Positions 1 through 29,350 of a stretch of 64,000 bases of DNA are shown here, piece after piece. The position numbers and the translations under genes were made by a program. The first letter of the stretch is position 1. Every line of letters starts with the position of its first letter. Source of the DNA: Deltaproteobacteria bacterium (GTDB lineage Bacteria > Desulfobacterota > Binatia > Binatales > Binataceae); assembly GCA_021794015.1 (NCBI GenBank), contig JAJYRQ010000002.1, positions 1 through 64,000 of the forward strand, given 5' to 3'. The notes beneath the pieces are model-generated. The model saw nothing but the letters and a program-made list of their open reading frames with translations. It ran no database searches and was not told the DNA's origin.

Positions 1-460
1 CCCCCTGCGGGGAAGAGGAATCAGGAAAAGGAGGTGCGCGACGCGCGTCCCTGCCGCCATGCAGTGGCCACGCGCGGGGGTGACAAGCAGGAGGCGGACG
101 CCCCACTGCCGTCATTCCCGCGCGCGCTGCTCGTTCTTGTCTCCCTCTCCCCTTGGGGGGAGAGGGAAGGGTGAGGGGGGCCGCTGGCGCCACCTCGAGC
201 CTCTGGGTACGTCCCCCCTCTCCCTTCGACTCCGCTTGCGCTCCGCTCAGGGCGGCGCCTTGATCCTCTCCCCCGGTGGGGGAGAGGAATCAGGAAAAGA
301 GGGTGCGCGCCTCCTCTTTGTCATTTCCGCGCGCGGTACTGACCGCACGGCAGCTTGCCCGACCAGCGGGAGCGCAATACGGGGAGGCGCGACGCGTGCC
401 CCTGCCGCCATGCAATGGCCTGGCGCGCGCGGAGAATCCCGGATTACGCTTCGCGTGGCA
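1..460 (+). repeat. Composite dispersed repeat (two partial units of the 342-bp TIR family)
   Basis: No convincing gene is present here. The block repeats itself: an AGGAATCAGGAAAA-type stretch occurs near 18 and again near 288, and CTGCCGCCATGCARTGGCC occurs near 51 and near 401. GTCATTCCCGCGCGC occurs at 111, and a one-base variant (GTCATTTCCGCGCGC) at about 319. The same building blocks recur near 29022 and, inverted, at 49677-50018. A CTCTCCCC/GGGGAGAG hairpin pair sits at about 140-175, and a CTCTCCCC/GGGGAGAG-like pair at about 264-286. The block is probably nested or tandem copies of a non-coding mobile repeat, cut by the window edge. Confidence 0.6.
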
Positions 461-2506: not shown

Positions 2507-3364
2507 TCACTTCGCGCTCCCACCGGCCGTTGCGCCGCGCGCGGCATTGCCGCGGCGCCCGCCCGCCATCGCGCGCGCGGCGCGTCCCCGGGCGATCTCG
2601 AAGAGCGCAACCGCCAGCGCAACCGAAACATTGAGCGACCCCACCCGCCCGCACATCGGGATACGCACCCTGAAGTCGGCGGCGCGTTTGACGATGTCGC
2701 GCACGCCGCTACCTTCCGCGCCCACCACCAGCACCAATCTGCGGCCCGTGTCCAGTTCGTAGAGCGAGGTCTCTCCGGCCGGGTCGAGCGCTGCCGCCCA
2801 ATAGCCGGCCTGCTTCAGCCGCTCAAGCGTGCGCGCTACGTTGCCGCATCGCGCGATCTCAAGGTGGAACGCGGCGCCCGCCGAGGTCTTGACCGCGGTG
2901 GCGGTCAGTTCGGCGGTCCGGTCGCGGGCGAGCACCACCGCACGCGCCCCGGCCGCCTCGGCAGAGCGCAGCGCGGCGCCCAGGTTGCGCGGGTCGGTCA
3001 CGCCGTCAACCAGAATCAGCGGGTCGGGCCGCTGTTCGATCAGCTTTTCCAGGTCGGCGTAGGCTGGCGCCCTGAGCTCGGCCAAGACGCCCTGGTGGTT
3101 GGCGCCCGCCTCGGTAAGCCGGCCGATCTCTTCCCGGCCGACGACCCGGATGGCAATCCCCCTTGCCCGGGCGGCGGCGATCTCGCGGGCAAGCGCGTGC
3201 TCGGTTCCGGCCGCGACATAGAGCGCTGTAACCTCGGCTGCCGCCCGGTCCAGAAGTTCGCGCACCGGCTCGCGCCCGAAGACGCGGGTGAATCCCGGAC
3301 CGGGCAGCCCGCCGTGGCGTCTAAGCGCCTCGCCTCTGTGGTCGCTCTTGCTTTTCGATGCCAA
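2507..3364 (-). CDS. rlmB: 23S rRNA (guanosine-2'-O-)-methyltransferase RlmB (TrmH/SpoU family)
   Basis: RlmB methylates the ribose of a conserved guanosine in 23S rRNA using SAM. An L30e-like substrate-binding domain occupies about residues 25-100. The SPOUT knot then shows motif 1 (DGVTDPRN, 120-127), motif 2 (VVGAEGSG, 213-220) and motif 3 (IPMCGRVGSLNVSVA, about 235-249), the last with the SLNVS signature. The start is TTG; an in-frame TGA lies six bases upstream and there is no internal Met nearby, so TTG is the best available start, though no clear Shine-Dalgarno is seen. The tail after residue 260 is a short Arg/Ala/Gly-rich extension. tRNA-Thr follows directly. TrmH itself is a less likely alternative. 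Confidence 0.9.
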   Translation of the reverse strand: MASKSKSDHRGEALRRHGGLPGPGFTRVFGREPVRELLDRAAAEVTALYVAAGTEHALAREIAAARARGIAIRVVGREEIGRLTEAGANHQGVLAELRAPAYADLEKLIEQRPDPLILVDGVTDPRNLGAALRSAEAAGARAVVLARDRTAELTATAVKTSAGAAFHLEIARCGNVARTLERLKQAGYWAAALDPAGETSLYELDTGRRLVLVVGAEGSGVRDIVKRAADFRVRIPMCGRVGSLNVSVALAVALFEIARGRAARAMAGGRRGNAARGATAGGSAK

Positions 3365-3811
3365 CGGTCACGCCATCGCCGGTTCTCCATGATAGCCCGC
3401 GCGCCAGCGAGCCGGTAGGGAGTTGGGCTGGCGGCGACCGGGACCGCCGCACGGACTTGCATCCTGGCCTGTTCGCCGGGCCGAAGCAAACCACTAGCAG
3501 GGTGTTGAGAAACCCCTCAAGCTCGCTATCAGGCGTGGTTCCATTCTCAACGCCCTGCGTAAAAGATGGCTTCTTTCCTACACCTTCTCTCCCTCTGGGA
3601 GAGATAAGAGTGAGGGAGCAGGATGTTGAAAGGACTTTTTCAACATCCTGCTAGACTTTGTTACAGGGGAAAAGAGAATACCTGCGAGCGCAACACCAGT
3701 TGGCAGCGATCCAAGACTTGCAGCCGCGCGCGGCAGGGGAAGGGCACGGAGCAGCCCGGCGCACGGGCTGCCCCAGGCCGGACGGCGCCCCCGGAGAATC
3801 GTGATCGGGCG
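3365..3811. other. Intergenic region between rlmB and lptF
   Basis: Apart from the miniature element at 3494-3654, no gene is seen in these roughly 450 bases. The divergent promoters for rlmB and lptF must lie here, but no clear -35/-10 pair could be picked out. The reading frame of lptF is open back into the element, but that upstream part is low-complexity and has no homology-like features. Confidence 0.5.
3494..3654 (+). mobile_element. IS5-like miniature element, copy 1 (153 bp plus CTAG duplications)
   Basis: The element 3498-3650 is flanked by CTAG on both sides. That matches the 4-bp YTAR target duplication of IS5-group elements. The ends are inverted repeats: CAGGGTGTTGAGAAA on the left and, read inward, CAGGATGTTGAAAAA on the right. 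It contains three hairpins: an imperfect one between 3498-3511 and 3544-3557, CTCTCCC/GGGAGAG near 3585-3605, and a perfect 15-bp one (3617-3631 with 3638-3652). It has no coding capacity. It matches copy 2 at 6094-6246 with one mismatch. The IS5 assignment rests on target and end sequence only. Confidence 0.8.
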
Positions 3812-4990
3812 ATGGTAAGGCCGACGATCCTTGACCGCTACATTGCCGGCGAGGTGGTAAAACCGCTCGGCCTGGGCCTGGCCGTCTTCACCTTTGCGCT
3901 GGTGACCGGGCGGATGCTCAAGCTGACCGAGATGGTGGTGAATCACGGTGTGGCGCTGGGCGGCGTGCTGCGGCTTTTGGGGCTCATCATGCCGGCCTTC
4001 TTCGAGCTGACGCTTCCCATGGCGGTGCTGCTCGGCGTGCTGCTCGGCTTTGGCCGGCTTTCCGGCGACCGGGAGCTTATCGCGGCGCGTGCCTGCGGTG
4101 TGAGCCTCTACCGGCTTGCCGTCCCGGTGGTGGCGATAGGATGTATTGCGTGGGCGATATCGGGCTGGCTTGCCTTCGAGGCGCGCCCCTGGGCGATGGC
4201 GCGCCTGCAGGACGAGCTTTACGACCTGGCGCGTACCGAGTCGGCGGCCGGGCTCAAGCAGCAGGTGTTCAACCAGGACCTGCCCGGCATCGTGCTCTAC
4301 GTCGAGCGGATACGCTCCAAGGACGGAAGCCTTCAGGGCGTGCTGCTTTCCGACCTGCGCAACCCCGACCAGCACAACACGGTCCTTGCCGCACGCGGGC
4401 TGGTGTTGCCCGATCCACGGCACAAGACGATTACGCTGCGCCTTTACGACGGGTCGATCTTCGGCACCGATGAAGAACAGGGAGCGGTGCATCTGACCAG
4501 CTTCCACATCTACGACCTGACGGTCGCGCCCGGCGCCACGCTCGGCGTCAGGGAGCGCGAACCCGAGGAGTTGCGCTACGGGGCGCTCAAGCGGCGGGTG
4601 GCCGCGGCGCGCCGGGCGCACAAGCCCGACCTCGAGGCGGAAACCGAGCTGGCCGGCAAGTACACCGTGCCGCTTGCCTCGGTGCTGTTCGCGGTGGTGG
4701 CAGTGCCGCTGGGGCTTAAGCCGGCCCGCGGCGGCCAGTCCGAACGGTTCGGGCTGAGCGTGGCGCTCTTCTTCGTCTACTACGTGATGATGAAGACGGG
4801 GCAGACCTTTGCCCAGGACGGACGCTTGAACCCGCTGCTCGCCATGAGCATCCCGGATGGCGCCTTCGCGCTGCTCGGCGGTTGGCTGTTCTGGCGCGCG
4901 GCGCACGAGCGGTTCGAGCAAAGCCGGGGTCTTAGCGACCTGCTGTGGACGCTGGCGGAGCGCTATGCGAGCAGGAGGGTGGCGCCGTGA
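3812..4990 (+). CDS. lptF: LPS export ABC transporter permease LptF
   Basis: LptF is one of the two inner-membrane permease subunits of LptB2FG, which lifts LPS from the inner membrane to the LptC/A bridge. At 392 residues it has the family layout: two N-terminal membrane helices (about 13-35 and 50-72), a conserved cytoplasmic coupling segment SGDRELIAARACGVS, a third helix, a periplasmic beta-jellyroll (about 130-280), and three C-terminal helices after residue 285. The ATG at 3812 was chosen because it starts MVRPTILDRYI, the usual amphipathic N-terminus. The frame stays open to 3623 inside the mobile element. The stop overlaps the lptG start (GTGA), so the pair is translationally coupled. 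lptB, lptC and lptA are not in the window. Confidence 0.92.
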   Translation: MVRPTILDRYIAGEVVKPLGLGLAVFTFALVTGRMLKLTEMVVNHGVALGGVLRLLGLIMPAFFELTLPMAVLLGVLLGFGRLSGDRELIAARACGVSLYRLAVPVVAIGCIAWAISGWLAFEARPWAMARLQDELYDLARTESAAGLKQQVFNQDLPGIVLYVERIRSKDGSLQGVLLSDLRNPDQHNTVLAARGLVLPDPRHKTITLRLYDGSIFGTDEEQGAVHLTSFHIYDLTVAPGATLGVREREPEELRYGALKRRVAAARRAHKPDLEAETELAGKYTVPLASVLFAVVAVPLGLKPARGGQSERFGLSVALFFVYYVMMKTGQTFAQDGRLNPLLAMSIPDGAFALLGGWLFWRAAHERFEQSRGLSDLLWTLAERYASRRVAP

Positions 4991-6093
4991 CCGGCCCGGC
5001 GCATCTTTCGCCGACCGTCAACCGGTTTCTGGGGCGGCAGTTCCTGGGCCCGTTGCTGGTCTGCCTGATGGCGCTGGTGTTGGTATACCTGACCGGCGAC
5101 CTTTTTGACCGCTTCGAGGAGCTGATCAGGCATCAGGGGTTCGGCCTCATCGCGCTTGAGTACTTCCTGCTGAAGCTGCCGCTGATGGTTTCGCAGCTTC
5201 TGCCGGCGGCCTGCCTGGCGGCGGCGCTTTTGGGCCTGGGTCTGCTCAGCCGCTCGGGCGAGATGCTGGCCTTTCAGCAGCTCGGGATAAGCCGCCTTGC
5301 GGTGGCCGCGCCGCTTGTGGCGCTGGCGCTCGTGATCGCCGGGCTCAACTTCGTGCTCAACGAGACGCTGGTGCCGGTGACGGCGCGCCAGGCGCGCTTC
5401 GTTTACCAGGTGAAGCTGCAGCAGCGCAAGCTGCGCGGGGTTTTTGCGAATCGCAGAATCTGGGTCAGGACGCGCGGGGGCTTCGTCAGCGCCGATGCGT
5501 ACGACCCGGCCGAGCGTCGGCTTTACGGGATGACGTTCTTTCGGCTGGGTCCGGGCGCAAACCTGGAAAGGGTGGAGCGGGCCGCCGAGCTTGACTGGAC
5601 CGGGCGCGGCTGGAAGGTCAACGGCGTGCTTCAGACCTTTTCGCTCAAGCCCGAGGTACGGGCGGCGCTCAGCAGCTCCCCGACCCTGTCGGACTTGGGG
5701 CTCAAGCCGAGCGATCTGGGGGCGTTTTTGCTCGAGCCCAGCGAACTCAACGTCTGGCAGCTCACCCGCTACATTGAGGGGCTCAGGCGCAAGGGGCTCG
5801 ACCCGGGCGGCTACGTTGTCGACCGCGACCTCAAGTACGCAACGCCGCTGGCCTGTTTCGTCATGGTGGCGCTTGCGCTTGCGCTCAGCCTCGACCCGCG
5901 CCCGCGTACTTTTACCATGGGGCGCAGCTTCGGGTTCGCGATCGCGATCGGTTTTGCCTACTGGGTGCTGCTGGGGCTGACTTCGTCGCTGGGCCGCTCG
6001 GGGCTGTTGCCGGCCGGGCTTGCGGCCTGGGGCGCAAACCTGGTTTTTTCGCTGCTTGCGGTTTCGTTGTTTCTTTGGGGCGAGGAGCACTAG
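4987..6093 (+). CDS. lptG: LPS export ABC transporter permease LptG
   Basis: This is the second permease of LptB2FG, 368 residues, with the same fold as LptF: N-terminal helices at about 18-40 and 58-80, coupling segment SRSGEMLAFQQLGIS, a third helix near 105-125, a periplasmic domain and three C-terminal helices. The start is GTG at 4987, sharing GTGA with the lptF stop. The frame is open 42 bases further up, but that would run well inside lptF. The TAG stop (6091-6093) is part of the CTAG target duplication of the second miniature element, so the insertion occurred exactly at the stop codon and preserved the protein end. Confidence 0.92.
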   Translation: MTGPAHLSPTVNRFLGRQFLGPLLVCLMALVLVYLTGDLFDRFEELIRHQGFGLIALEYFLLKLPLMVSQLLPAACLAAALLGLGLLSRSGEMLAFQQLGISRLAVAAPLVALALVIAGLNFVLNETLVPVTARQARFVYQVKLQQRKLRGVFANRRIWVRTRGGFVSADAYDPAERRLYGMTFFRLGPGANLERVERAAELDWTGRGWKVNGVLQTFSLKPEVRAALSSSPTLSDLGLKPSDLGAFLLEPSELNVWQLTRYIEGLRRKGLDPGGYVVDRDLKYATPLACFVMVALALALSLDPRPRTFTMGRSFGFAIAIGFAYWVLLGLTSSLGRSGLLPAGLAAWGANLVFSLLAVSLFLWGEEH

Positions 6094-6250
6094 CAGGGTG
6101 TTGAGAAACCCCTCAACCTCGCTATCAGGCGTGGTTCCATTCTCAACGCCCTGCGTAAAAGATGGCTTCTTTCCTACACCTTCTCTCCCTCTGGGAGAGA
6201 TAAGAGTGAGGGAGCAGGATGTTGAAAGGACTTTTTCAACATCCTGCTAA
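6090..6250 (+). mobile_element. IS5-like miniature element, copy 2 (153 bp, CTAG/CTAA flanks)
   Basis: The element 6094-6246 has the same orientation as copy 1 and differs by one base (CTCAACCTC versus CTCAAGCTC). The left flank CTAG and right flank CTAA both fit YTAR; one base of the duplication may have mutated. It carries the same terminal inverted repeats and three hairpins. The left CTAG contains the lptG stop codon. The two copies form a 2.6-kb direct repeat around lptF-lptG. Confidence 0.8.
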
Positions 6251-6397: not shown

Positions 6398-6886
6398 ATG
6401 AGTTCGGTCGAAGAGGCCCCTGCAAAGGTCTTCGCTCGCCCCGCGATACGTGAGTTTTTGGCCTTTGCCCGGGTCGGGCGGTTGGCTACCGTTGATTCAA
6501 TCGGCGTGCCGCACAATATTCCGGTCTGTTTCTGGTTCGACAACGCCCGCTTCTACTTTGCGGTCGACGAGAAGCCCAAGCGCCGCCACGCGCTCAAGCT
6601 CAAGCGGATGCGCAACATTGCCGCCAACCCGCAGGTCGCGCTGCTGGTGGACCATTACGAGGAGCAGTGGCAATGCCTTGCCTACGTCCTGGTGTTCGGC
6701 CGCGCCAGCGTGGTCGAGGACCCGGAGGAGTACCTGCTTGCGCTGCGCAGCCTGCGCGACAAGTATCCGCAGTACCGCGCGATGGTGCTGCACGCCGAGC
6801 GCAACCCGGCGGTGCGAATCGACCCCGAGCGGGTTCACGTTTGGGGTGAGCGCTTCCAAGCGGCGGCCGCGGAGCGCAGGGCATGA
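6398..6886 (+). CDS. PPOX-class pyridoxamine-5'-phosphate-oxidase-like FMN/F420 protein
   Basis: This 162-residue split-beta-barrel flavin protein resembles the PPOX-class F420-dependent family. Visible features are an opening helix with REFLAFARVGRLATVDSIGVPHNIPVCF, written here as the typical R-x-G-x-L-A-T...G-x-P-x-x-x-P pattern, and later RMRNIAANPQVALLVDHYEE and VLVFGRASVV. A C-terminal P-x-R-V-x-x-W-like segment (PERVHVWGERF) follows. The ATG at 6398 was preferred over a TTG at 6362 because homology-like sequence starts after it. The cofactor (FMN or F420) cannot be told from sequence alone. It stands between lptG and a serine hydrolase and has no obvious pathway partner. Confidence 0.75.
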   Translation: MSSVEEAPAKVFARPAIREFLAFARVGRLATVDSIGVPHNIPVCFWFDNARFYFAVDEKPKRRHALKLKRMRNIAANPQVALLVDHYEEQWQCLAYVLVFGRASVVEDPEEYLLALRSLRDKYPQYRAMVLHAERNPAVRIDPERVHVWGERFQAAAAERRA

Positions 6887-28803: not shown

Positions 28804-29350
28804 AGCGTGCAACCGACACCGCCCCCATCGCGCAGCGCCGCGCCGAGCTTAGCCGGCAACGACGCGCCGGCTCCGACGGCAACATGGTCAGCCGGATGCC
28901 CGCGGCGGGCCAACTCCGGGCCGAGTCGAGCTTTCACCGCATCGAGAGCCGTAGCCATTTGTCGCTGCTTGCCCGGGCACTGCGCGCCCAAGCCTCTGCG
29001 CTTGACCAAGCGGCGAGGGCCGCGCGGCAGCTCGCCCGACCCGCCTGCCGCGACCGCGCGGTGCAGGCAGGCCAAGAGGAGCGCAACACCACGATCTGCC
29101 GCCACGAGCCCCCGCCGCGGTGCAATGGCCTGGCGCGCGCGAGGAATCCCGGGTTGCGCTGCGGCATTTGAATGGCCTTCATTCTGCGCCAGGAGGCTAA
29201 GCCAGAGGGTTCGCATGCTCCACAGACGATCAGTATTGCGGTAGACGCCAAGCATCATGCCCCGCCAGCAGCGAACCGAGCGGCTGCCGTCGTCCCCCAA
29301 TATTTGATAACGTCCTTCATCCCATGTGGAAGGGGAGGCCTTTCGGGAAA
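28804..29350. other. Intergenic region holding a repeat copy
   Basis: The stretch contains the partial repeat at 29022-29168 and otherwise nothing recognisable. Confidence 0.5.
29022..29168 (+). repeat. Partial copy of the 342-bp TIR repeat family
   Basis: It shares with the copies at 1-460 and 49677-50018 (inverted) the ordered blocks GCGGCAGCTYGCCCGACC, GCCTGCCGC, GCAGGCAGGCCAA, GGAGCGCAA and TGCAATGGCCTGGCGCGCGC followed by GGAATCCCGG-type sequence. Both terminal GTCATTCCCGCGCGC segments are missing here. The inner CCTGCC...GCAGGCAGG arms could pair into a stem. Confidence 0.65.

What the first reader, a model, noticed from the sequence alone, without database searches (positions are those of the whole stretch)
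3494..6250. Two IS5-like miniature elements bracket lptF-lptG, one exactly at the stop codon
Both 153-bp elements are in the same orientation, one mismatch apart, with YTAR-type flanks (CTAG/CTAG and CTAG/CTAA). The second lies so that its CTAG duplication contains the TAG stop of lptG, leaving the protein unchanged. Direct repeats around an essential pair could mobilise it as a unit or recombine.
Basis: partly seen in the sequence, partly recalled or inferred. Interest (0 to 1): 0.6.

Follow-up and report, generated by a model that had tools for sequence, protein, structure and literature searches.

The report
Two jumping-DNA miniatures beside lptF-lptG
Two nearly identical 153-base non-coding jumping elements of the IS5 type have inserted independently on either side of an essential gene pair, one of them exactly in a stop codon because the element's preferred target (CTAG) contains a stop codon; this is a new family of a known kind of element, with unusually well conserved hairpins.

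Summary
Two 153-bp elements (3498-3650 and 6094-6246, same strand, one mismatch) have flanks CTAG/CTAG and CTAG/CTAA; the second sits in the TAG stop of lptG. They belong to a MITE family with 11 full, 2 diverged and 1 deleted (60-bp) copies in this genome and homologous copies in relatives of the same family. A full-length IS with the same ends and CTAG/CTAG flanks (1,305 bp, intact IS5-family transposase NF033581) exists in a relative. None of 29 relatives examined carries the element at the lptG stop, and five end lptG in an empty CTAG. The neighbours rlmB and a PPOX gene are ancestral on both sides, so these are two separate insertions and lptF-lptG has not been carried as a unit. Landing on a stop codon is what YTAR targeting predicts: 38% of non-coding CTAGs here are stop codons, against 7 of 12 non-coding insertions (p=0.12). 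The less ordinary feature is that each terminal repeat is one arm of its own hairpin, and these hairpins, with a middle one, are kept by compensatory changes. New member of a known kind (compare MITEPsy1/ISPsy2).

The parts
3494..3497 (.). left target duplication of copy 1, CTAG
3498..3650 (+). MITE copy 1 (153 bp), between divergent rlmB and lptF
3498..3557 (+). left hairpin of copy 1: outer arm CAGGGTGTTGAG (left terminal inverted repeat), inner arm CTCAACGCCCTG
   Evidence: fold; covariation
3583..3605 (+). middle hairpin of copy 1 (TCTCTCCC..GGGAGAGA; approximate limits)
3619..3650 (+). right hairpin of copy 1: inner arm CAGGATGTTGAAA, outer arm TTTTTCAACATCCTG (right terminal inverted repeat)
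3651..3654 (.). right target duplication of copy 1, CTAG
6090..6093 (.). left target duplication of copy 2, CTAG; bases 6091-6093 are the TAG stop of lptG
6094..6246 (+). MITE copy 2 (153 bp), one mismatch to copy 1 (6117 C versus 3521 G)
6247..6250 (.). right flank of copy 2, CTAA
3812..4990 (+). lptF, LPS export permease (overlaps lptG start)
4987..6093 (+). lptG, LPS export permease, GTG start, TAG stop inside the target duplication
2507..3364 (-). RlmB/TrmH-like RNA methyltransferase (named from its sequence, family not scanned), conserved divergent neighbour of lptF
6398..6886 (+). pyridoxamine-oxidase-like (PPOX) gene (named from its sequence, family not scanned), conserved downstream neighbour of lptG in 14 relatives

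Best explanation
Both repeats are copies of a non-autonomous IS5-type miniature inverted-repeat transposable element. An IS5-family DDE transposase supplied in trans by a relative IS with the same ends (CAGGGTGTTGARAAA) cuts and inserts them into a 4-bp YTAR target, mostly CTAG, which is duplicated. Two separate insertions happened in this lineage: one between rlmB and lptF, one into the CTAG formed by the last base of lptG's final codon and its TAG stop, so the duplication restores the stop codon. Shown: family, ends, target duplication, empty sites, an autonomous IS with the same ends in a relative, two separate insertions. Inferred: which transposase moved them, since no intact partner with these ends is in this assembly; and that one window copy may have seeded the other by a short hop or been matched to it by gene conversion, as they are the most similar pair in the genome. 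The conserved hairpins probably form in transcripts running through the element and may affect 3' ends of messages such as lptG; that function is inferred only.
For: Copy number and identity: 11 full copies, 96-100% identical, plus 2 diverged and one 60-bp copy. Flank pairs over fetched copies of the wider set: CTAG/CTAG 25, CTAA/CTAA 6, TTAG/TTAG 3, with 12 mismatched YTAR pairs, the same ranking as E. coli IS5 targets (CTAG 15, CTAA 3, TTAG 3; PMC5493358). Autonomous IS: L087, 1,305 bp, CTAG/CTAG flanks, ends CAGGGTGTTGAAAAA / CAGGGTGTTGAAGAA, open transposase frame that is NF033581 IS5 family (252 bits, cut-off 140) and PF05598+PF01609. Empty sites: 29 relatives with lptG ending GEE[RH] then a stop and no element there, five with an empty CTAG (L124, L125, L126, L132, L142), 14 with the PPOX gene downstream; rlmB divergent from lptF in 31 of 36 loci without a paired element between them. 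Stop-codon landing explained by target choice.
Against: The only NF033581 transposase over the cut-off in this genome (C2) belongs to an IS with different ends (RGAACCTCTGC), so the driver is absent or missing from the 94.9%-complete assembly. Only about 15 bp of the ends are shared with the IS; no similarity of the interior was seen. 12 of 46 clean flank pairs do not match exactly, including copy 2 (CTAG/CTAA), and in 10 of these 12 the inner letters stay C/G, which a strict 4-bp duplication does not explain. Each end is a complete hairpin, which is not a defining feature of IS5 MITEs.
Confidence: 0.9

Rival explanations
1. The two copies form a composite transposon-like unit that carries or carried lptF-lptG.
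For: Same orientation, valid outer ends 2.75 kb apart, and the two copies are the most similar of all 55 pairs in the genome.
Against: The ancestral neighbours are intact on both sides in relatives; copy 1 has its own matched CTAG pair; the outer flanks of the supposed unit are CTAG and CTAA.
Confidence: 0.03
2. The repeats are REP/REPIN-type palindromes moved by a RAYT (Y1 transposase).
For: Terminal hairpins with a tetranucleotide at the foot; 3'-end locations.
Against: No Y1_Tnp (PF01797) gene in the genome (controls ring); target duplication and inverted repeats of an IS5-family element.
Confidence: 0.04
3. The element is a host-maintained structured RNA or terminator module rather than a mobile element.
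For: Strong fold (z -8.5); covarying hairpins; half of the copies at gene 3' ends.
Against: Empty lptG stop in the relatives examined, dispersed copies with target duplications, no Rfam family (best 17.9 bits against a cut-off of 37); the terminator-like match lacks a clean T run and such matches are near the shuffled number.
Confidence: 0.05
4. The element actively selects stop codons as a safe harbour.
For: 7 of 14 copies at a stop codon, two of them in shared stops of convergent genes; p 0.018-0.025 against non-coding YTAR or all CTAG sites.
Against: Against non-coding CTAG sites, the fair comparison, 7/12 versus 38% gives p = 0.12.
Confidence: 0.1

Closest known systems
MITEPsy1 / ISPsy2 (Pseudomonas syringae; PMC3189936)
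   Same: Short non-coding element with ends like those of an IS5-family IS, 4-nt duplication of CTAG or YTAA; MITEPsy1 was shown to transpose.
   Different: MITEPsy1 is 100 nt with ends GGAAGGTCTGAAAAAGCC; here 153 bp, ends CAGGGTGTTGAG, and each end is a full hairpin.
IS5 (E. coli) and NF033581 IS5-family transposases
   Same: Py-T-A-Pu target with CTAG favoured, 4-bp duplication; the partner IS encodes an NF033581 transposase.
   Different: The element carries no transposase; its ends differ from those of E. coli IS5 (from memory, not tested).
ERIC/RU, Correia/NEMIS and REP/BIME structured repeats (general knowledge)
   Same: Short, dispersed, strongly folding intergenic repeats often next to gene 3' ends.
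   Different: Other ends and targets; no Y1 transposase here; no sequence relation tested beyond Rfam.

Membership tests
MITE (non-autonomous DNA transposon) | short, multi-copy, no transposase gene | tested here: met
   153 bp, 11 full copies, too short for a transposase gene
MITE (non-autonomous DNA transposon) | terminal inverted repeats | tested here: met
   CAGGGTGTTGAGAAA at one end, CAGGATGTTGAAAAA at the other
MITE (non-autonomous DNA transposon) | target-site duplication and empty sites | tested here: met
   34 of 46 clean flank pairs identical; empty lptG stop in 29 relatives. Copy 2 itself is CTAG/CTAA
MITE (non-autonomous DNA transposon) | transposition demonstrated | not testable with these tools
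   needs an assay
IS5-family origin | full-length IS of the family with the same ends | tested here: met
   L087, 1,305 bp, CTAG/CTAG, NF033581 transposase
IS5-family origin | YTAR 4-bp target | tested here: met
   literature
IS5-family origin | partner IS present in the same genome (usual, not strictly defining) | tested here: not met
   no strong unpaired end in G000; its NF033581 IS has other ends; assembly 94.9% complete
REP/REPIN (RAYT) | Y1 transposase (RAYT) in the genome | tested here: not met
   PF01797 none in G000
Composite transposon carrying lptF-lptG | unit found outside its ancestral context, or shared outer duplication | tested here: not met
   synteny; outer flanks CTAG/CTAA
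Rfam RNA family | reaches a gathering score | tested here: not met
   best hit 17.9 bits, cut-off 37

The most novel reading that the evidence does not exclude
A MITE family whose two ends and middle are held as hairpins by selection on structure, so that insertions into stop codons add a structured 3' tail (or a two-way barrier between convergent genes) to host messages while the target duplication restores the stop codons; transposase recognition and RNA or single-strand structure are then both properties of the same terminal sequence.
Probability: 0.2. Interest if true: 0.5.

Novelty: new member of a known kind. Interest (0 to 1): 0.28.

Why it matters
It explains simply why such elements can sit exactly in stop codons of essential genes without harm: an IS5-type YTAR target contains TAG/TAA, CTAG reads as a stop on both strands, and the duplication rebuilds it. 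It also documents a MITE family and its likely IS partner in a poorly known soil lineage whose relatives are deposited as Deltaproteobacteria, and a set of copies on which the role of hairpin-forming ends can be tested.

Tried and rejected
Composite mobilisation of lptF-lptG (rejected by synteny and flanks). REP/RAYT origin (no Y1 transposase). A 2-bp TA duplication with G/C belonging to the element: fits the 10 mismatched pairs with inner C/G, but not the nine matched CTAA/CTAA and TTAG/TTAG pairs, so 4 bp is kept with an unexplained residue. Stop-codon preference beyond target availability: not significant against non-coding CTAG sites. Plasmid search with the whole element gave only short weak matches. 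Rfam: nothing above threshold. Paper searches for MITEs at stop codons found no direct precedent, in an open-access library only.

Full report
OBSERVATION. The repeats are real. One search finds one 162-nt direct repeat family, 99% identical, at 3492 and 6088. The element bodies are 153 bp (3498-3650, 6094-6246) and differ at one base. Flanks are CTAG/CTAG and CTAG/CTAA. lptG ends ...GEEH then TAG, and this TAG is bases 2-4 of the left CTAG of copy 2.

COPIES IN THE GENOME. One search gives 11 full-length copies at 96-100% identity, a 60-bp derivative (C40), and two diverged copies (C46, C8) with a different left-hairpin loop. A search for the end motif with up to two mismatches found the outer ends of these copies, inner arms of their hairpins, and scattered two-mismatch hits; no strong unpaired end that could mark a full-length IS was seen. 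The two window copies are the most similar of the 55 pairs, which suggests a short hop or gene conversion but rests on one pair.

RELATIVES. 18 of 96 genomes searched match, the window's own included, all but one of them in the same family. Named records with the core are MAGs deposited as Deltaproteobacteria (palsa_1114, palsa_1115, YP4.bin102, YP3.bin70).

AUTONOMOUS PARTNER. L050 showed an IS left end with CTAGCAGGCTGTTGAAAAA followed by a transposase frame. Searching with that protein gave L087: a 1,305-bp IS with CTAG on both sides, ends CAGGGTGTTGAAAAA and CAGGGTGTTGAAGAA, and an open transposase frame assigned to IS5 family NF033581 and to PF05598/PF01609. L091 is a second IS with an open frame and slightly different ends; L097 is broken.

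EMPTY SITES AND SYNTENY. In 29 relatives lptG ends at the same place (GEE[RH] and stop) with no element there; five end in CTAG, which is the empty target. The PPOX gene follows lptG in 14. rlmB lies divergently upstream of lptF in 31 of 36 upstream loci, with no paired element between them; two genomes of one genus have a single unpaired end-like motif there. So each site was filled separately in the window's lineage and the pair has not been moved.

TARGET DUPLICATION. Over the fetched copies, which include related miniature elements and full-length ISs as well as copies of this MITE, clean YTAR flank pairs were CTAG/CTAG 25, CTAA/CTAA 6, TTAG/TTAG 3, CTAG/CTAA 5, TTAG/CTAG 5, CTAG/TTAG 2. 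This matches published IS5 targets. In 10 of the 12 mismatched pairs the inner letters are C/G and only the outer letter varies; I cannot explain this with a strict 4-bp duplication.

STOP CODONS. On 462 kb of the genome with the flanks of each copy joined in the script, my codon-usage gene caller put 7 of 14 insertion sites in stop codons, 5 between genes and 2 within 14 nt of a gene's 3' end. Two sites (C15, C46) are shared stops of convergent genes; both genes keep a stop. Background CTAGs are 80 coding, 77 intergenic, 47 stop. Against non-coding CTAGs the stop excess is p = 0.12; against non-coding YTAR sites p = 0.018; avoidance of coding sites is p = 0.045 (CTAG) to 0.0002 (YTAR). Target choice plus selection against coding insertions is enough.

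HAIRPINS. The element folds into three main hairpins. On 28 copies from several genomes, 91% of cells pair, and 42 cells have changes on both sides against 13 in shuffles and 3-9 in slid controls. Left arms and right arms change independently of each other (for example G011: left GTGCTGA/TCAGCAC, right CTGCGGA/TCCGCAG), so pairing or palindrome-templated repair, and not only shared transposase recognition, probably keeps them. Shuffle counts are not probabilities because the copies are related. No terminator or promoter case is made.

COMPARISON. MITEPsy1 is the nearest precedent: IS5-type, CTAG or YTAA duplication, shown to move. The present family is a new member of that kind, with hairpin ends as its less usual feature. 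A REP/RAYT origin is disfavoured.

LIMITS. The assembly is a draft (61 contigs, 94.9% complete); 153-bp repeats could cause misjoins, but both flanks of both copies are syntenic with relatives. Gene calls are approximate. No activity was tested.

Noticed in passing
L244:1357-2672 (G000 C2): An intact IS5-family IS (NF033581, 320 bits) with other ends (RGAACCTCTGC) and CTAG on both sides sits directly against a second, about 120-bp MITE with CAGGATGCGGAAAAA ends: the IS appears to have inserted into the MITE's CTAG flank.
   Followed up: partly
L012:1420-1487 (G000 C40); L055:1215-1282: Solo 60-bp single-hairpin elements with their own YTAR flanks; the one in G000 looks like a deletion between the inner arm of the left hairpin and the right end.
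   Followed up: partly
A1 columns 16-49; L001-L011 versus L013, L014, L018, L074-L077: The loop of the left hairpin is nearly unalignable between copies of different genomes while stem and core are conserved.
   Followed up: no
L046-L049 (G036): Another MITE family of 128 bp with similar ends (CAGGATGTTGATTAAAGGG...TTTTTCAACAGCCTG).
   Followed up: no
L028, L029, L077, L187, L189, L207, L208 (genus g15): 178-181-bp versions with the middle hairpin region duplicated.
   Followed up: no
window 39-102, 390-453, 29100-29163: A three-copy 64-nt repeat (66-83% identity to the reference copy) unrelated to this element.
   Followed up: no
table: In mismatched flank pairs the letters next to the element stay G/C and the outer ones vary (10 of 12).
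   Followed up: partly
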